A stretch of DNA of 32,874 nt from a virus. The translations under genes and the position numbers were made by a program. This document shows, piece after piece, positions 2,250-32,767 of this stretch. The stretch lies in the IMG/VR virus record IMGVR_UViG_3300036845_000279, positions 1 through 32,874 of that record; one strand, written 5' to 3'. The number at the start of each line of letters is the position of its first letter. The first letter of the stretch is position 1. The notes below the pieces were generated by a model that was not told the origin of the DNA, did no database searches, and worked only from the letters and a program-made list of their open reading frames with translations.

Positions 2250-2840
2250 TTACCGGCCCGGGGGTGCAGTCTCGTCTGGGTTCGGTAACACGGGGTTCAG
2301 GTTGTTCCCTGGCACCACATAGGGCGGTGTGCCGGGTATGGGTGGCGCTACAGGCGGTGTGGGACCGGGGTCAGGTGGCGCGGGAGCCGCTGCAGGACCG
2401 GGTGCGCCCGGCGGTGGGGGCGGTTGGCCGTCAGGTAATAGTTCGGGTTTCGGTGCGACGGTTTTGCATTTCGCCGGCTGAATGTAGGACTTCCACGCCC
2501 CCGGCGGGTTCGGCGGGTCAGACATCGACAGGTCGGGGCACGCCCAGTAGGTGATTCCCCGCAGTAGTCCGACTGGGGAGGTGACGGAGGCATTAATGAA
2601 CATGATTGAGATGCCGACGTTCGCTGTCCACATCCCCCCGCCGTACAGGGACAACCAATGTGATCCGTTGATCTCCGTCGGGCCTGCGCAGGCGTAGTCG
2701 TATTCGCCGAACGCAGCACCGGAGGCGCCGATCATCGGATAGTCACACCCACCCGGACCCGGCACCGACCCACCGATATCCGCGCGGACAGGAGCAGCCA
2801 ACAACAGTGCTGCTGCGGGCAGCAGCAGAAGCCGTTTCAT
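2250..2840 (-). CDS. Secreted proline-rich protein (CDGP-like)
   Basis: Encodes 196 residues from an ATG overlapping the preceding gene's stop (ATGA). Residues 1-20 are a signal peptide: MKRLLLLPAAALLLAAPVRA with a likely cleavage after VRA. The mature domain (~21-135) has five cysteines and a GCDYP...DYACAGP...INGSHW pattern resembling small exported mycobacterial CDGP-type proteins. The C-terminal third is a low-complexity Pro/Ala/Gly tail rich in PPPP, PAAAPAPP and PPVAPP, as in cell-wall-spanning proteins. It is the last gene of the lysis operon. It could act at the envelope during lysis, exclude other phages, or be a host-derived gene carried by the phage; these are not distinguishable here. 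Confidence 0.75.
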   Translation of the reverse strand: MKRLLLLPAAALLLAAPVRADIGGSVPGPGGCDYPMIGASGAAFGEYDYACAGPTEINGSHWLSLYGGGMWTANVGISIMFINASVTSPVGLLRGITYWACPDLSMSDPPNPPGAWKSYIQPAKCKTVAPKPELLPDGQPPPPPGAPGPAAAPAPPDPGPTPPVAPPIPGTPPYVVPGNNLNPVLPNPDETAPPGR

Positions 2841-3070
2841 CTTTTCAGCCGCCGCACCCCGACACCGATACCGTGGATAGGATCCACCCACTTAGGTAGA
2901 GCCGACGTGAGGTGAGCTGCGACCGAGCCGATCACCGCGTACGCCAGAATTGGATGGCTATTCGCATACCGGGCGCTGGCCTGCGACAGCATCTCGTCGT
3001 CCGCGCACAGCAGATCCCACGCCACCACCCCAACCCCAAGCGCAATCCAGGCGCGGTCAGACGACCTCAC
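2837..3070 (-). CDS. DUF7427-like small membrane protein
   Basis: Encodes 77 residues with a GTG start overlapping the upstream stop (GTGA). An N-terminal hydrophobic segment (WIALGVGVVAWDLLC, residues ~8-22) is followed by a loop with SQASARYANSHPILAYAVIG and a second weakly hydrophobic stretch (AVIGSVAAHLTSALP). The DEMLSQ...RYxxSHP pattern is what I recall of the DUF7427 family, common beside lysis genes in actinobacteriophages. Role unknown; a lysis accessory is plausible from position. Confidence 0.75.
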   Translation of the reverse strand: MRSSDRAWIALGVGVVAWDLLCADDEMLSQASARYANSHPILAYAVIGSVAAHLTSALPKWVDPIHGIGVGVRRLKR

Positions 3071-4704: not shown

Positions 4705-5811
4705 TCACGGCAGCAGCCCGCGTACCCAGTTGATGCCGCCATCCAAATTGAAGGGGCTGTAGTGGGGGTTGGTTCCGGTCTGGGCGATGAAGCCGATCCC
4801 GCTGACGATGGCCTGGAAGATGCCCCACACCTCATCAAACGGGGCCGTGAACAGGTTGGCGATGTCCGCCAGAATTGAGAACTGGTTGGAGAAGAAGTCC
4901 GAACGCGCAACCGCCTGGTAGATCGAGGCTTTAATGTCACCTTCGCGGGACGGGTTGGTGACTGCCCCCAGCACGCCGAGCAGCGGATTGGCCGCGGTCC
5001 CTCCGAGGAGACCGGTCAGGCTGCCGAGCAGTCCACTGTTTTGACTGAGGACCGTGCGTAAAGCAGCGCTCGTCGGCTCGTTGTCAGCGAAAATGTCGCC
5101 CTTCCGGTAAACATCCATGATCGGGAACTTTGGATTCAGTCCTAGGAGGTCGATACGCTTCAGCGGGTCGAGGCCGGAGTTCTGCGGCGGCCCGCCCTGT
5201 GCGCGCGACCAAGGCGCCACCGAACCCTTCTGGCGGCACGGATTTCCGTAGGCCAGCACACCGAGGATGTCGTTTTCTCGGGGGCTGCCGATCACGCGGT
5301 CGATCAGCCAGTCAGAGACGACGATCATCCCCTGGGAGAATCCGGCAACTACGATCTTGGTTCCGGGAGGGGCGAACTGGTTGACCCGGTTGTCCAGCTC
5401 GTTCACGCCGGAAGCGTTGTCGAACGGCAACGCACCATTGTTGTAGCCGGTCGGCAGGTGGGTGACCAGGCTCTCCTGCTCGAGGGCCTCAGCGGTACCC
5501 GCCGCGGGACCTACCCACATGTCACTCATGTGGCCTTCGACCGTGAAGAACGGGACACGTGGTTTTGGGATTGGTTTGATGAAGTGCGACTTGAGTTGCG
5601 AAGCGTAGTCGAAGATCCCGGTGACGGGCAGGCCGTAGCGGCGTTGCATCTCCGACACCACCGCCGCGGTGGCAGCGTCGTAAGTCCCGGTGGCGACAAG
5701 ATTTCCCGCGTAGGCTTTGAAGTGGGTGGCGAGGAATGTCTGTATCTGCGCGACTTTGGGATCTACATCGCCCAAGCCCCAGCCCACCCATTTACCGTTT
5801 GCGTCTTTCAT
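4705..5811 (-). CDS. lysB: Lysin B (mycolylarabinogalactan esterase)
   Basis: Encodes 368 residues; the ATG at 5811 overlaps the lysin A stop (ATGA). Residues ~1-75 form a peptidoglycan-binding-like domain (VAQIQTFLATHF, TGTYDAATAAVVSEMQRRYGL). The rest is an alpha/beta hydrolase of the cutinase-like lysin B family: the nucleophile elbow GFSQG puts Ser at ~159, KGDIFAD supplies the likely catalytic Asp, and NPHYSPF near residue 350 supplies the His. The enzyme cleaves the ester joining mycolic acids to arabinogalactan, freeing the outer membrane in the last step of lysis. Length fits the family, and all triad candidates are intact. Confidence 0.95.
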   Translation of the reverse strand: MKDANGKWVGWGLGDVDPKVAQIQTFLATHFKAYAGNLVATGTYDAATAAVVSEMQRRYGLPVTGIFDYASQLKSHFIKPIPKPRVPFFTVEGHMSDMWVGPAAGTAEALEQESLVTHLPTGYNNGALPFDNASGVNELDNRVNQFAPPGTKIVVAGFSQGMIVVSDWLIDRVIGSPRENDILGVLAYGNPCRQKGSVAPWSRAQGGPPQNSGLDPLKRIDLLGLNPKFPIMDVYRKGDIFADNEPTSAALRTVLSQNSGLLGSLTGLLGGTAANPLLGVLGAVTNPSREGDIKASIYQAVARSDFFSNQFSILADIANLFTAPFDEVWGIFQAIVSGIGFIAQTGTNPHYSPFNLDGGINWVRGLLP

Positions 5812-7010
5812 GCGCCGAATACCTTGTCTCTCAAAGTTTTGCCCTTCGAGGCCCAAGCCGGGTCTCCAGGTCCGAGCTGCGCCACGATGTAGCGGAGAAG
5901 GTCGGTGTCCGACGCGGCTGTGTACCATGCAATGAAAGCTTCGTCGGCGGCGCCGGATGTCGGCGGGACGGCAGGAGCGGGTGTTCCTGGGGTGTATTGC
6001 GCGACACGGGTGGCGAACACATCCCAGGGGAAGTTCAGTCCAACATCGGTGTGGGTGCTGCCAGGGCTCAACTGGGTGACGGTGATCGCGTTGTGGTCAG
6101 TGATCCCGTTTTCTTTGACCACTCGCGGATAGTCCTTACCGACCAAGATTTGGGTTGGGATGTTGAACGCCAAGCATTTTCTGACGGCCAGGTAGGCGGC
6201 GCTTTTAATACCGGCGGACATGTTGTCCAGCCACTCCTGTCGCGTCCAGTTCACTGTTGAGGTGGCGAAGCAAATGTTGATGGAGAACTCGTTAGCTGGG
6301 TCCAGCACTGACCAGGAGGCGACATCGTCGGTTTCCATGTCGTCTACGGAGCCGTCCGGGTTGATGATGTAGCCGTAGCTAACCCCGTTGCTGGCCATCC
6401 AATCGACAAACGCCGAGCCCTGCATCGACCCTTCCTCGGTGTGCAGGATGATGAGTCTCGGCTTGTAGCCTGCGCGGTCCTCGCAGTTGTTGTTGTTCTG
6501 GGTGAGGTCAGTTTCAGTGAACGGCGCCGGCCCGACCGGGGTTGGCGGCAGCGCGGGTACGGGCACATTTCCTCCTGAAGCGAGCTGGTTGTAAAGCGTT
6601 TGGGCGTCGGACATGCGCTGGTCGTAGCGATCCGGATAGGCCGACTGTTGAATCGCCTGCGCGTACGAGCCCGGAGTGTTGGTGTCGCTGTTGTAGTCGA
6701 GCTTCGCAAGCCGGGTGAAGAACAGCGCCGCCGATTTGTACGGGTCCATACATGTTGCGGCGTCGCCCCACCACCACGGCGGCCCCACCACCTGCTGCTG
6801 GAATAAGCCGACCGACGCGCTGTCGGAGCCGACCGCGTCGTGTGGAATCGACATGGACGCGGGCACTGCAGCGTTGGCGTACATCAGCCAGTTCGACTCG
6901 ACGAACACGGTCGCGAACCCGATCACGATGCCTTTCGGGCTAATACCTAGATCGGCACCAGCCTGCAGGACTGCCGGCGCATACTGTTGCGCAGTCACAA
7001 CCGGCCCCAT
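5808..7010 (-). CDS. lysA: Lysin A (lysozyme-like domain plus amidase)
   Basis: Encodes 400 residues. I choose ATG 7010 (MGPVVTAQQY), inside the end of a small upstream gene; an in-frame start at 7037 is less well placed. Residues ~5-145 resemble a transglycosylase/lysozyme-like domain with FVESNW (Glu38 a candidate acid) and SVGLFQQ. A Pro-rich linker (PVPALPPTPVGPAP) leads to an Amidase_2/PGRP-like domain (~175-335) with probable zinc ligands His190 (IILHTEEG), His306 (TDHNAIT) and His320/Asp322 (STHTDVG). A second Pro/Ala linker and a ~45-residue C-terminal segment (AFIAWYTAASDTDLL) follow, perhaps wall-binding. It would cut the glycan strand and the muramoyl-alanine bond. The stop overlaps lysB. 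Confidence 0.92.
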   Translation of the reverse strand: MGPVVTAQQYAPAVLQAGADLGISPKGIVIGFATVFVESNWLMYANAAVPASMSIPHDAVGSDSASVGLFQQQVVGPPWWWGDAATCMDPYKSAALFFTRLAKLDYNSDTNTPGSYAQAIQQSAYPDRYDQRMSDAQTLYNQLASGGNVPVPALPPTPVGPAPFTETDLTQNNNNCEDRAGYKPRLIILHTEEGSMQGSAFVDWMASNGVSYGYIINPDGSVDDMETDDVASWSVLDPANEFSINICFATSTVNWTRQEWLDNMSAGIKSAAYLAVRKCLAFNIPTQILVGKDYPRVVKENGITDHNAITVTQLSPGSTHTDVGLNFPWDVFATRVAQYTPGTPAPAVPPTSGAADEAFIAWYTAASDTDLLRYIVAQLGPGDPAWASKGKTLRDKVFGA

Positions 7011-28868: not shown

Positions 28869-30431
28869 TCACAGGACTAGGACCTCTGGGCCGTCGGCCA
28901 TCGAATAAATGCTGGGTCGGTCATCGGGTAGGTTCGCGAGTCCCCACACCGCGCCGATACCGGCCATCAGGGGTGCGGTTTCGGTGGGGGATTTCATCGG
29001 GTCCAACACCCAACCCCCTTCCGGCCCTATTTTTGTAGCGGCGGATGTGGCGGCGGAGTCCATTCCGGGGTGGAATAGGTGCCGGATTTTGTGGTCACGG
29101 AGGGCGTCGAACATCTGTCCGTGCGCCGCGGACACATCCGTTGCGGCCCATTTGATGAACGGCAACCCTGCGTCTTCAATCTCGGCTGCCATCGACGCGG
29201 CGGGGATACGTGAGCCGATCCGGATGACGATCACGTTGTAGCGTGACCTGTGTTTTTTGAGGAACGGCAACACCCAGTCAGTTCCCGCCTGGTCTTCCCA
29301 AATACCAAAAACAGGGTTGCCCTGCATATCGAGGGAGGCCCGGGCGAGGTAGGCGCGGCTACGGTCCGGGGGGATCTCCAAACACACCGCCGCTGCCGCC
29401 CCGGTAGCCACGTTGGGGGCGGTGTCGGAGGTGTCTGACCACGCCTCAGCCGGAAATGGTCCACCGTCGGAGTGGGCGACCCAGATGCAGCGGCATTCCT
29501 TATCAAACACCGCGGCCGGGTCCTCATTCATCGCGTGAATAAGTGCGCGGTCGGTGACACAATCGGTGACGATGTCGGTGTGGTTCATCGCCGGATTCGC
29601 CTGCGCCAAAGCCGACATATCCGTCCGCGCGGAATGCGGGGGGGCGGACCATTCAAAAAAACCAGTCGCTACCTGACCGACGTTCTCCAACAGGGCGGCT
29701 ACGCCTTGGTCTGGTTCATCCAAGATGCCGGCGTCCTGATTGCCGTCCGGCCAACCCAAATCCCTATGCGCTTTGGTGCGTAAATGCCGTAACACGATGC
29801 TGAGGAGATCTCCGGCGTTGGCGAACGCCCACGTCTGCGCTTTCGGGCGGGCCATCGCCGTTTTCGTGACCGCAGCCCAACTGTCCCAGGCTTGGTGTTC
29901 CTGCAACTCATCCAAAAGGATCAGATCACCAGAGAAACCCCGTCCACCTCTTCGGGAGGCGGAGGCTACGCGGTATTCGCAGCCGTTCTCCAAAATCAAC
30001 CTTTTCGGGTGGCCGCGTTTCACCCCGGAGCGGTCTTTCTCCCCCGTCCCATCAATCAACGGCTCGAGCTCGGGGTTGGACATCGCCCATTCGACGGCGT
30101 CTTCCCACGACTCTTCAGCCCTGGGAAGGTCTTGGGCGGTTGCGATGACCTTCCGGGAGTCGAGGGCGTAGATATGCCATAAAGCTAAAACCACCATAAG
30201 GAGGCTTTTGCCGTTCTGCCTGGCTACTTCCACAACCACGGTGCGAAACCGGTAGAGGCCATCCTCGTTGAGTTCCAGCGCGTGGAGGAGGAGCCATTTC
30301 TGCCAGGGAAATAGCTTTATTTCGAGGACTTCTTCAGCGAACGCGATACACGCGAACCCATGAGTCGTCTCTTCGGTCAGCTCACGCCGCGGAGGTGTAT
30401 AGATCCGCGGCGTCTCAGCTCCGAGGTTCAC
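28869..30431 (-). CDS. Large terminase subunit
   Basis: Encodes 520 residues from a GTG overlapping the previous stop (GTGA). The N-terminal ATPase has FPWQKWLLLHALEL (adenine-binding region), a Walker A-like VARQNGKS with Lys75, and Walker B DLILLDE at 169-175 with Glu175 catalytic. TAQDLPRAEESW and AFANAGD (motif III/coupling) are also visible. The C-terminal part is the RNase H-like nuclease (ARASLDMQGNPVFGIWE supplies an acidic residue). It cuts concatemers and pumps DNA into the prohead through the portal encoded downstream. Confidence 0.95.
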   Translation of the reverse strand: MNLGAETPRIYTPPRRELTEETTHGFACIAFAEEVLEIKLFPWQKWLLLHALELNEDGLYRFRTVVVEVARQNGKSLLMVVLALWHIYALDSRKVIATAQDLPRAEESWEDAVEWAMSNPELEPLIDGTGEKDRSGVKRGHPKRLILENGCEYRVASASRRGGRGFSGDLILLDELQEHQAWDSWAAVTKTAMARPKAQTWAFANAGDLLSIVLRHLRTKAHRDLGWPDGNQDAGILDEPDQGVAALLENVGQVATGFFEWSAPPHSARTDMSALAQANPAMNHTDIVTDCVTDRALIHAMNEDPAAVFDKECRCIWVAHSDGGPFPAEAWSDTSDTAPNVATGAAAAVCLEIPPDRSRAYLARASLDMQGNPVFGIWEDQAGTDWVLPFLKKHRSRYNVIVIRIGSRIPAASMAAEIEDAGLPFIKWAATDVSAAHGQMFDALRDHKIRHLFHPGMDSAATSAATKIGPEGGWVLDPMKSPTETAPLMAGIGAVWGLANLPDDRPSIYSMADGPEVLVL

Positions 30432-30697
30432 ACCCCGGGAAACAGGTATGTGACTGTGCTGCTACCGGTCGCGACGATGGCGTAAAGGTCGTGCACATAG
30501 CCACCCGTGGAGGGGATATGCACCAGCGTCGTCGCCGGTATTGAGACGCCCGTAGTAGCTGTCACGCTGGGTCCACCGAACACCGTCGCCGCACTACAAG
30601 ACACCAAAACGTCATCGTTCTCAGCCGAGACAGTGCACACCAGGGTCGCTGTGGTGCCCACGGTGACAGAACCGTTGACGTAGGACTCGTTTGGCAT
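30428..30697 (-). CDS. Small beta-rich protein upstream of large terminase
   Basis: Encodes 89 residues. ATG 30697 follows GGAAGG, preferred over a GTG 24 nt upstream. It is almost entirely beta and Val/Thr/Ser-rich: SYVNGSVTVGTTATLVCTV, DVLVSCSAATVFG, GGYVHDLYAIVATG and STVTYLFPGV. No charge-rich helix or membrane segment. The composition fits a capsid decoration or small virion protein. Function not assignable. It is the first - strand gene after the DUF732 island. Confidence 0.7.
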   Translation of the reverse strand: MPNESYVNGSVTVGTTATLVCTVSAENDDVLVSCSAATVFGGPSVTATTGVSIPATTLVHIPSTGGYVHDLYAIVATGSSTVTYLFPGV

Positions 30698-30754
30698 CAG
30701 GGAACCTTCCGGAAAAGTCACAGGAAATCAGCAGGAGAAACGCGGAACTAAAGG

Positions 30755-30783
30755 TTGCCGACAGTGGTTAATGGCACTATGAC
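30755..30783 (+). promoter_or_regulatory. Putative + strand promoter, leaderless
   Basis: TTGCCG (30755-30760) and TATGAC (30778-30783) are spaced by 17 bp, a weak sigma70-like promoter. The ATG at 30788 begins 5 nt after the -10 box and lacks a ribosome-binding site, so transcription could start at or near the codon (leaderless, common in mycobacteria). Based on inspection only. Confidence 0.4.
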
Positions 30784-30787
30784 ACTC

Positions 30788-31285
30788 ATGCTCGACCCAG
30801 AACCAACCCTCGCCGCACCAACCGAGGACGAAACCCAGTCTTTGCACGCCTGGTCACAAGAAGACACCGCCGAGGTTGTTGACTATCGGCCGCGCAGCTG
30901 GAAACTCCCAGCCCTGGTGGTCACGATCGCCGCTGCGGCAGCCGTTACGGCTGGCCTGTTTTTGGCGTGGCCGAGTGCTACAAAACCGCAGGTCGCACCC
31001 ACGAAACCCCAGGTCACGGCACCAGCAAAACCGGCCATCCCCACATCCCCGCCAGTGCAGTCACAAAACCCGGATGACCGCTACGTTGCACTCATTCAGC
31101 AACGCGGAATGGACGTTATCTCCCGAACCCAGACCATCAACGCTGCCCACTGGATCTGTGAGCAGCACAAACACGGCTATCCCGCCACGGAGATCGCACA
31201 GGCCATCATCGACAGCACCCCCGGCATGACCATGAAGGGCGCCGCAATCGACATCGACACCGCGCTCGAGGTGTACTGCCCATGA
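30788..31285 (+). CDS. Membrane-anchored DUF732-like protein
   Basis: Encodes 165 residues from ATG 30788 (an ATG at 30779 is also possible). Residues ~1-42 are acidic and cytoplasmic; ~43-62 form one transmembrane helix (ALVVTIAAAAAVTAGLFLAW); ~65-98 are a Pro/Lys/Thr linker (KPQVAPTKPQV). The outer domain (~100-165) resembles DUF732: DDRYVALIQQRGMD, an AAHWICEQHKHG helix, and a final EVYCP, with two Cys that may pair. DUF732 is a mycobacterial exported domain of unknown role. The stop overlaps the next start. It is antisense to the late operon, so probably expressed separately, perhaps from a prophage. Confidence 0.8.
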   Translation: MLDPEPTLAAPTEDETQSLHAWSQEDTAEVVDYRPRSWKLPALVVTIAAAAAVTAGLFLAWPSATKPQVAPTKPQVTAPAKPAIPTSPPVQSQNPDDRYVALIQQRGMDVISRTQTINAAHWICEQHKHGYPATEIAQAIIDSTPGMTMKGAAIDIDTALEVYCP

Positions 31286-31560
31286 AACTATTCACCCTGA
31301 TAAGTGCCGGGTTTCTGCTGGTCGCACCCACAGCCCGCGCCGACGAGGGAACGTTTATCGCAGACCTCCAAGGCCAGGGAGTCCCAACCAACTGGCCTTT
31401 CGTGGTTCAACCCGTCGCCGGAACCAACATCTGCAACGAACTCCATAACGGGTTCACCCCGCAAAAAGTCGTACAACAATTCGCGCCAATCCAAGCGAAC
31501 TGGGCCCCCACCATCGTGGCAACCGCGCAACGCGACATTTGCCCCGACACCCTGCACTAA
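31282..31560 (+). CDS. Secreted DUF732-like protein
   Basis: Encodes 92 residues; the ATG overlaps the previous stop (ATGA). Residues 1-20 are a signal peptide (MKLFTLISAGFLLVAPTARA). The mature part has the DUF732 pattern: DEGTFIADLQGQGV, NICNELHNGFTPQKVVQQF and ATAQRDICPD, with three Cys. It pairs with the membrane-anchored partner, giving one anchored and one soluble version of the same fold. Its TAA overlaps the stop of the convergent HNH gene. Role unknown; envelope or host-interaction function is inferred. Confidence 0.8.
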   Translation: MKLFTLISAGFLLVAPTARADEGTFIADLQGQGVPTNWPFVVQPVAGTNICNELHNGFTPQKVVQQFAPIQANWAPTIVATAQRDICPDTLH

Positions 31561-32270
31561 CCGGTCCGCTGAAGCTTCCACTGCTGGAACTCGTCGAACT
31601 GGGCTTTAAGGTCTCTACGCCACTTCGCGTCGTGGGATGCGTGACATGGCCAGCACATCGGCATATAAAACTCGGGGTATCGGGAGTAGACCAGCTCCGA
31701 AGACCGCTGCCGTCCACACAACTCGTTCGGGTCTGTTCCGTCATAAGCCCAGTGATCAGATGCGTCACCGCAGTTCACGCACGGATACTGGCTGGATGAC
31801 CCCCAGAGCGCGATGCACCGAGAATGCGCCGCCCCATACGAGCAGGGCTTTTCGATCACAAACTTCGCCCGGCCCACGCTATGAAGCGGAGCGTGCAGGT
31901 CATGACCCATTTTCGTGCGATGCCAGTGCATCGCACATAGCCCTGCTCGTTCTATCGGCTTAATACACCGGGCGCCCGTGTCCGGGTTCACAACAGTGCA
32001 TGGTTTGCGGGGTTTGCGGGTTTGGCGGCACTGCAGGCATCGGCGCCCTGGACCGCTCGCCTGATCAGGGTATTCATGCCCATTTTTGCAATGAGTGGGC
32101 CACGCACGCCGCCCGACGCGGCGTCTATAGGCCGCGCGTTGCCGCTCGGACTGAGCTTTGCGGCAGATGTCACAGCGGCACCCTTTTCGGTACCTTGCCG
32201 AGCCGCCGTGCTTAATTTGCTGACCCTGATGGGACACGGAGCGAAACATCGCCGAACATGAATTACACAT
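31557..32270 (-). CDS. HNH endonuclease with multiple zinc-finger motifs
   Basis: Encodes 237 residues from an ATG with CCGGGAGA eight nt upstream. Zinc-like motifs occur in series: CxxC at 2-5, HGxxxxYxxGCRCxxC at ~21-36, CKNGHEY...CLQC at ~61-81, CTVV...RC...LCAMHWH at ~91-117. The C-terminal HNH domain has CVNCG (164-168), the catalytic pair Asp172-His173 in DHWAYDG, and MCWPCHASHD (205-214). HNH proteins beside terminases can assist cos cleavage, or be homing endonucleases. The leader has two perfect hairpins, and its stop overlaps that of the DUF732 gene. Confidence 0.85.
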   Translation of the reverse strand: MCNSCSAMFRSVSHQGQQIKHGGSARYRKGCRCDICRKAQSERQRAAYRRRVGRRAWPTHCKNGHEYPDQASGPGRRCLQCRQTRKPRKPCTVVNPDTGARCIKPIERAGLCAMHWHRTKMGHDLHAPLHSVGRAKFVIEKPCSYGAAHSRCIALWGSSSQYPCVNCGDASDHWAYDGTDPNELCGRQRSSELVYSRYPEFYMPMCWPCHASHDAKWRRDLKAQFDEFQQWKLQRTG

Positions 32271-32356: not shown

Positions 32357-32767
32357 TTAACCTGTTTTCGTGTTTACACTGGTCATCGACCTGACAGATG
32401 CAAGTTTCGACTTCTTCGTATCGCCGGCTTTGCGTAGCGTTTCCAGCATGTCCGCGAGTTTCGCTGCAGCGGCCGGCTTCGAGGACGTGGCGCGAGGATC
32501 ATCCATCACCTTCGCCAAGGCGATCGCCGTAGCGACCAAACCAGGTCGAGGAGCATTCAAATCGGCGATCTCAGCCCGCACGCCACTTTCAACGCTGTCA
32601 TCAGCAGAAACAGGGGCTGAATTGGAAAAATCCGCAACAGCGGTCAGATCGCCGAACTGCTTCCGCTGGCGCAAATCCTGCTGATACGCCCGCTCCGAAG
32701 ATTTGCACTTCTCACACCGACAGCCCTGCTTATACCCGCGGCGCCCATGCACTGCGATCATCGGCAT
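32357..32767 (-). CDS. Small terminase subunit (probable)
   Basis: Encodes 136 residues; TTGGAG lies six nt before the ATG. The N-terminus carries HGRRGYKQGCRCEKC, a metal-binding-like motif shared with the HNH protein, then a basic helix (SSERAYQQDLRQRK). The middle is acidic and probably disordered. The C-terminal ~60 residues (GLVATAIALAKVMDDPRA, KPAAAAKLADMLETL, KSKLASVRSMT) match the helical C-terminal region I recall from mycobacteriophage small terminase subunits. It would recognise the packaging site and recruit the large subunit. Being first in the late operon supports the call; homology is not certain. Confidence 0.65.
   Translation of the reverse strand: MPMIAVHGRRGYKQGCRCEKCKSSERAYQQDLRQRKQFGDLTAVADFSNSAPVSADDSVESGVRAEIADLNAPRPGLVATAIALAKVMDDPRATSSKPAAAAKLADMLETLRKAGDTKKSKLASVRSMTSVNTKTG

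What the first reader, a model, noticed from the sequence alone, without database searches (positions are those of the whole stretch)
30755..31560. Two-gene DUF732 island antisense within the terminase region
A membrane-anchored and a secreted DUF732-like protein, coupled by ATGA, sit on the opposite strand between the small and large terminase genes. The late transcript from the small terminase would run antisense through both. Both carry export signals typical of the host genus, and a promoter-like sequence precedes them. This fits a moron or lysogenic-conversion unit expressed from a prophage and altering the mycobacterial surface. The paired anchored/soluble arrangement suggests a two-component envelope system not described to my knowledge.
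Basis: partly seen in the sequence, partly recalled or inferred. Interest (0 to 1): 0.8.

Follow-up and report, generated by a model that had tools for sequence, protein, structure and literature searches.

The report
Antisense envelope-protein genes in phage
Two small genes for exported mycobacterial-type proteins sit backwards inside the packaging genes of a phage whose closest relative is temperate, with their own conserved promoter; they look like cargo that a dormant phage expresses to change its host's envelope, probably against other phages, an arrangement known in outline from a Pseudomonas phage.

Summary
[quoted passage not shown] The first encodes a single-pass membrane protein, the second a secreted protein; they overlap by ATGA. 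Both pass Pfam's DUF732 cut-off. D1 most likely starts at ATG 30779 on a leaderless transcript: GGAAC-N18-GTTAAT-N6-ATG is kept in relatives while its spacer is not.

The antisense slot is filled in seven related loci (window included), each ending in a 4-base stop-to-stop overlap with the late gene, but content varies: D1+D2 (window, L003, L005, L008), D2 alone (L004), RHH-like gene plus D1 (L007), membrane protein+HTH-like+D1 (L142). It is empty in M. abscessus and M. canariasense prophages. The closest near-complete relative is temperate.

So 'prophage-expressed moron' is well supported, though no expression data exist. 'Undescribed two-component system' is not: the genes occur apart, hosts carry many DUF732 genes, often in tandem, and phage Nebkiss has an overlapping secreted/anchored DUF732 pair. 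Closest functional precedent: Tab of Pseudomonas phage JBD26 (antisense between terS and terL, own promoter, anti-phage). Superinfection exclusion is my favoured function, inferred only.

The parts
30744..30772 (+). Candidate promoter of the island: GGAAC (30744-30748), 18 nt, GTTAAT (30767-30772), then 6 nt to ATG 30779; suggests a leaderless transcript; resembles an ECF-sigma promoter
   Evidence: GTTAATGG..CTATGACA block invariant in window, L003, L005 and L004, while the spacer has no invariant column; only match in the window, 0.31 expected with one mismatch allowed
30779..31285 (+). D1: 168-aa single-pass membrane protein, cytoplasmic N-terminus with AWSQ...RSWK motif, Pro-rich linker, C-terminal DUF732 domain with Cys127/Cys167
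   Evidence: Pfam 49.2 bits; AF2: one helix 45-61 plus helical DUF732 domain at pLDDT about 96-98; homologues 59/55% in L003/L005
31282..31285 (+). ATGA overlap of D1 stop and D2 start
   Evidence: sequence
31282..31560 (+). D2: 92-aa secreted DUF732 protein (signal MKLFTLISAGFLLVAPTARA-DE), two Cys, C-terminus CPDTLH
   Evidence: Pfam 24.4 bits, cut-off 22.4; PHROG 658; 86% identical in L004 with dN/dS 0.22
31557..31560 (.). CTAA: stop codons of D2 (+) and of the late-strand HNH-like gene (-) overlap by 4 bases, as at the corresponding junction in relatives
30428..30697 (-). Late-strand accessory gene, 89 aa (97 aa from GTG 30721), divergent from D1; present in L003, L004, L005, L142
   Evidence: no database family
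31557..32270 (-). HNH-like gene inserted between terS and D2 in the window only; absent from this spot in L003, L004, L005, L142
   Evidence: PHROG 4160 2.9e-27; relatives in 115 phage records, some annotated HNH endonuclease
32357..32767 (-). Putative small terminase (by position)
   Evidence: PHROG 37967 1.2e-23, unnamed family; syntenic in relatives
28869..30431 (-). Large terminase
   Evidence: PHROG 9, 2.1e-66

Best explanation
A lysogeny-expressed moron in a conserved antisense slot between terS and terL. It has its own promoter, probably giving a leaderless mRNA, so it can be used in the prophage while the late genes are off. D1 is inserted in the membrane with its DUF732 domain outside; D2 is exported by Sec and stays in the envelope or is released. 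Together or singly they alter the mycobacterial envelope to the benefit of the lysogen, most likely by superinfection exclusion. In lytic growth the late transcript runs across both genes and would antagonise them. Shown: gene structure, DUF732 homology, conserved promoter-like box, modular and optional occupancy of the slot, temperate relative. Inferred: expression in the lysogen, leaderless start, localisation, exclusion. The confidence given is for the lysogeny-expressed envelope moron; exclusion as its function I put at about 0.35.
For: Antisense DUF732 genes in the same terS-terL gap of L003, L004, L005, L007, L008 and L142. Promoter box invariant across four phages, including L004 where D1 is cleanly gone and D2 sits behind D1's promoter. 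Purifying selection on D1 (dN/dS 0.27-0.36) and on D2 within its two allele classes (0.22, 0.35). Closest near-complete relative has integrase, HTH repressor and HTH_17 gene. DUF732 relatives lie at lysogeny-type places elsewhere: prophiGD36-2 gp67 beside integrase and polymorphic-toxin genes, CCUG48898T-2 gp2 beside its integrase, the D2 homologue near the end of the 57-kb IMG/VR contig G266, whose integrase is at the other end. Opposite-strand modules within lytic genes are lysogen-expressed in M. abscessus prophages (PMC8092301). Tab of JBD26 has the same antisense terS-terL place with its own promoter and gives anti-phage defence (PMC10884400).
Against: No transcript, lysogen or phenotype data. 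The window itself is a fragment without an integrase. DUF732 genes also occur among genes expressed lytically: Troll4 gp76 was chosen as a likely lytic gene and is toxic when over-expressed (PMC7474061), and Stormageddon gp194 precedes minor tail genes. No defence-system profile matches.
Confidence: 0.62

Rival explanations
1. Lysogenic conversion for host fitness rather than defence: the exported DUF732 proteins add to the host's own set of envelope DUF732 proteins and help survival or interactions in the environment.
For: All 41 sampled genomes around M. canariasense carry DUF732, 2-31 genes each; host proteins share the anchored architecture; L003's phage also carries a PPE gene.
Against: Position and antisense design match a known defence moron; no phenotype of a DUF732 envelope protein was found in the papers searched.
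Confidence: 0.25
2. Early lytic host-takeover or exclusion genes, expressed soon after infection before late transcription starts.
For: Phage DUF732 genes are often found near whiB-type regulators in non-structural regions; Troll4 gp76 is inhibitory when over-expressed.
Against: Here they sit in the late region on the opposite strand, away from early operons, with their own promoter.
Confidence: 0.15
3. The main role is transcriptional: the antisense promoter damps terS and the start of the late operon in lysogens, the proteins being secondary.
For: Convergent stop-to-stop junction in all loci; no clear terminator directly after D2, so read-through into the late genes is likely.
Against: The proteins are under purifying selection and the slot carries different proteins in relatives; M. 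abscessus and M. canariasense prophages manage without it.
Confidence: 0.08
4. A Tab/anti-Tab-like defence with its antidote in the late operon: the 89-aa late gene next to D1 cancels D1/D2 during lytic growth.
For: Same topology as tab/atab; the 89-aa gene is next to the island in window, L003, L004, L005, L142.
Against: L007 and L008 have the island without that gene; D1/D2 are exported whereas Tab acts in the cytoplasm; sequence relation to Tab was not tested.
Confidence: 0.06

Closest known systems
Tab / anti-Tab moron of Pseudomonas phage JBD26 (PMC10884400)
   Same: Antisense gene between small and large terminase genes, own promoter, temperate phage, optional among relatives, neighbouring late-strand gene
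   Different: Tab is a single 83-aa protein that blocks tail assembly; D1/D2 are exported DUF732 proteins of mycobacterial type; no defence shown
Nebkiss gp162/gp161 DUF732 pair (Gaiavirus)
   Same: Overlapping genes, one short secreted DUF732 protein and one anchored DUF732 protein with an AYS...PRRSWK motif before the membrane helix
   Different: Order reversed, anchored protein has two DUF732 domains, located among small non-structural genes, not in the terminase gap; function unknown
DUF732 genes of M. abscessus prophages (prophiGD36-2 gp67, CCUG48898T-2 gp2 and gp70)
   Same: D2-like secreted proteins or an anchored D1-like protein in temperate mycobacterial phages
   Different: gp67 and gp2 lie next to integrase genes and gp70 beside glycosyltransferase genes, not between the terminase genes
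Opposite-strand toxin-antitoxin modules in M. abscessus prophages (PMC8092301)
   Same: Modules transcribed against the lytic genes and expressed in lysogens
   Different: Toxin-antitoxin proteins, in early regions

Membership tests
DUF732 (PF05305) | Score above Pfam's gathering cut-off | tested here: met
   49.2 and 24.4 bits against 22.4; D2 is only just above
DUF732 (PF05305) | Two conserved cysteines and helical fold | tested here: met
   Cys conserved in alignments; AF2 helical domain, D1 pLDDT 96-98, D2 pLDDT mostly 75-93; disulfide not tested
Phage moron | Extra gene with its own promoter inserted among genes of another function, present in some relatives and absent in others | tested here: met
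   Slot filled in L003-L005, L007, L008, L142; empty in prophiGD36-2, phiT45-1, M. canariasense prophage; conserved promoter-like box
Phage moron | Expressed from the prophage | not testable with these tools
   needs RNA-seq of a lysogen
Tab-type terS-terL defence | Antisense gene between terS and terL with own promoter | tested here: met
Tab-type terS-terL defence | Homology to Tab and inhibition of tail assembly | not tested
   Tab sequence not compared; D1/D2 are exported DUF732 proteins, so not filed as members
Two-component (Rex-like) phage exclusion pair | Cytoplasmic sensor plus 4-pass membrane channel (PMC7542560) | tested here: not met
   D1 has one membrane helix and D2 a signal peptide; relatives have only one of the two

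The most novel reading that the evidence does not exclude
D1 is a transmembrane sensor: its outer DUF732 domain, paired with secreted D2, reads the envelope state, and its conserved cytoplasmic AWSQ...RSWK segment controls a host ECF-type sigma factor that in turn drives the island's GGAAC/GTT promoter, giving the prophage an envelope-stress switch. Hints only: the ECF-like promoter and a far-below-cut-off anti-sigma match of the L007 homologue (20.7 bits, cut-off 100).
Probability: 0.04. Interest if true: 0.8.

Novelty: new variant of a known kind. Interest (0 to 1): 0.45.

Why it matters
It points to the terS-terL gap as an antisense cargo slot in mycobacterial phages, parallel to the Pseudomonas Tab site, with interchangeable envelope cargo. 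DUF732 is a common but uncharacterised family of exported mycobacterial proteins; phages that keep one or the other gene under selection offer a simple genetic system to learn what these proteins do.

Tried and rejected
Single-protein scan of IMG/VR with D1 found nothing; alignments found L142 and L145. A scan for the start-site motif in IMG/VR gave 45 hits, mostly chance; only the known relatives also carry the terminase and DUF732 genes. PDB by sequence and by fold: no relative. Viral fold library: the convincing matches are other phage DUF732 proteins. NCBIfam and PADLOC: no usable match. Sigma-70 promoter scan: none. ORF length as evidence was rejected (44 long antisense ORFs). dN/dS near 1 between the two D2 allele classes (0.75-1.18) was not read as positive selection: 89-91 codons, poorly aligned, four sequences. 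I did not test whether the four-base stop overlap is selected or merely the tightest packing.

Full report
What is there. The window is a linear 32.9-kb IMG/VR contig with the late genes on the - strand: putative small terminase 32357-32767, HNH-like gene 31557-32270, an 89-aa gene 30428-30697, large terminase 28869-30431, portal, protease, capsid. Between the HNH-like gene and the 89-aa gene two genes run on the + strand. D1 (30779-31285) is a 168-aa protein with a cytoplasmic N-terminus, one membrane helix, a Pro-rich linker and a DUF732 domain; D2 (31282-31560) is a 92-aa DUF732 protein with a signal peptide. Both exceed Pfam's cut-off, D2 narrowly. They share ATGA. AlphaFold gives a confident helical DUF732 domain for D1 (pLDDT about 96-98) and one membrane helix; D2 is less certain. 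No signal-peptide or topology predictor was available; these assignments are read from the sequence and a hydropathy scan.

Start and promoter. The four phages that share the slot closely (window, L003, L005, L004) have GTTAATGG(C/T)(A/G)CTATGAC at the start of the first antisense gene, and GGAAC (GAAAC in L005) 18-19 bases before GTTAAT, while the spacer between the boxes has no invariant column. The -10-like box ends 6 bases before ATG, which fits a leaderless transcript, common in mycobacteria (general knowledge). The spacing and the GGAAC/GTT boxes resemble ECF-sigma promoters (general knowledge); no sigma-70 match was found. In the more distant L008, TAAAAT also lies 6 bases before the ATG.

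The slot in relatives. Large-terminase relatives from IMG/VR show the following between terS and terL, always antisense: D1+D2 in L003, L005 and the more distant L008; D2 only in L004, joined to D1's promoter and first codons; a ribbon-helix-helix-like gene plus a D1-like gene in L007; a small membrane protein, an HTH-like gene and D1 in L142, overlapping by four bases each. In every case the last antisense gene's stop overlaps the late gene's stop by four bases. The gap is empty in the M. abscessus prophages prophiGD36-2 and phiT45-1 and in an M. canariasense prophage (L039).

Life style. The window lacks an integrase, being a fragment. The closest near-complete relative (L003's contig, 49.7 kb; large terminase 83% identical) has an integrase, a HTH repressor and an HTH_17 gene, so it is temperate.

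Where else such proteins occur. The 41 sampled genomes around M. canariasense all carry DUF732 genes, 2-31 each; the 12 closely spaced pairs that I fetched mostly hold two secreted DUF732 proteins, and some hosts have anchored proteins built like D1. Phage Nebkiss gp162 (secreted) and gp161 (anchored, two DUF732 domains) overlap by four bases, so an anchored/secreted pair is not new. In M. abscessus prophages DUF732 genes lie by the integrase, and in the 57-kb contig G266 a D2 homologue with the same CPDTLH end lies near one end while the integrase lies at the other.

Selection. D1 shows dN/dS 0.27-0.36 and D2 0.22 and 0.35 within two allele classes, against 0.07-0.19 for the large terminase. 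Synonymous changes are partly saturated, so these are rough. D2 falls into two classes (window/L004 and L003/L005), which cuts across the terminase relationships: the window's terminase is closest to L003's. That is mosaic exchange.

How it probably works. The most economical reading is a moron expressed in the lysogen from its own promoter, putting DUF732 domains outside the cytoplasmic membrane. Two published parallels support the logic: M. abscessus prophages express opposite-strand modules in lysogens (PMC8092301), and Tab of Pseudomonas phage JBD26, antisense between terS and terL with its own promoter, is a prophage-expressed defence (PMC10884400). An exported protein would act at adsorption or DNA entry rather than on tail assembly, hence superinfection exclusion as the favoured function. 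This last step is inference.

Observation confirmed; moron idea supported by comparison, not by expression data; the two-component claim is weakened because the genes occur singly and because pairs are known elsewhere.

Noticed in passing
L043:1108-2121 (+), contig IMGVR_UViG_3300036790_000126: L003's temperate phage carries a PPE gene (PF00823 196.6 bits, PPE-SVP 39.2 bits) right after its last late genes and before the integrase; no match in 50,697 phage records. A phage-borne PPE protein seems unreported in that collection.
   Followed up: partly
window 2250-2891 (-): At the corresponding end of the late region the window has a different ORF with a signal peptide (MKRLLLLPAAALLLAAPVRADIG) and no Pfam match: a possible second cargo site.
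   Followed up: partly
window 31557-32270 and 32357-32767 (-): The HNH-like gene starts with a CRC..C segment like that of the putative small terminase and ends with the same TG-stop, as if inserted with part of terS copied.
   Followed up: no
L106:5268-5500 (-) and 5711-6001 (+): In genome G031 the terS-terL gap holds three tRNA genes (His, Glu, Gly) and an unrelated antisense ORF with a hydrophobic stretch.
   Followed up: partly
L007:1316-1486 (-) and its upstream: A ribbon-helix-helix-like gene precedes the D1-like gene, with an inverted repeat ATCCCTAGATAGGGGAT before it, a possible self-operator.
   Followed up: no
L145:363-566: A D2 homologue with the same CPDTLH end sits tail to tail with the late genes near the end of contig G266, with the integrase at the other end.
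   Followed up: yes
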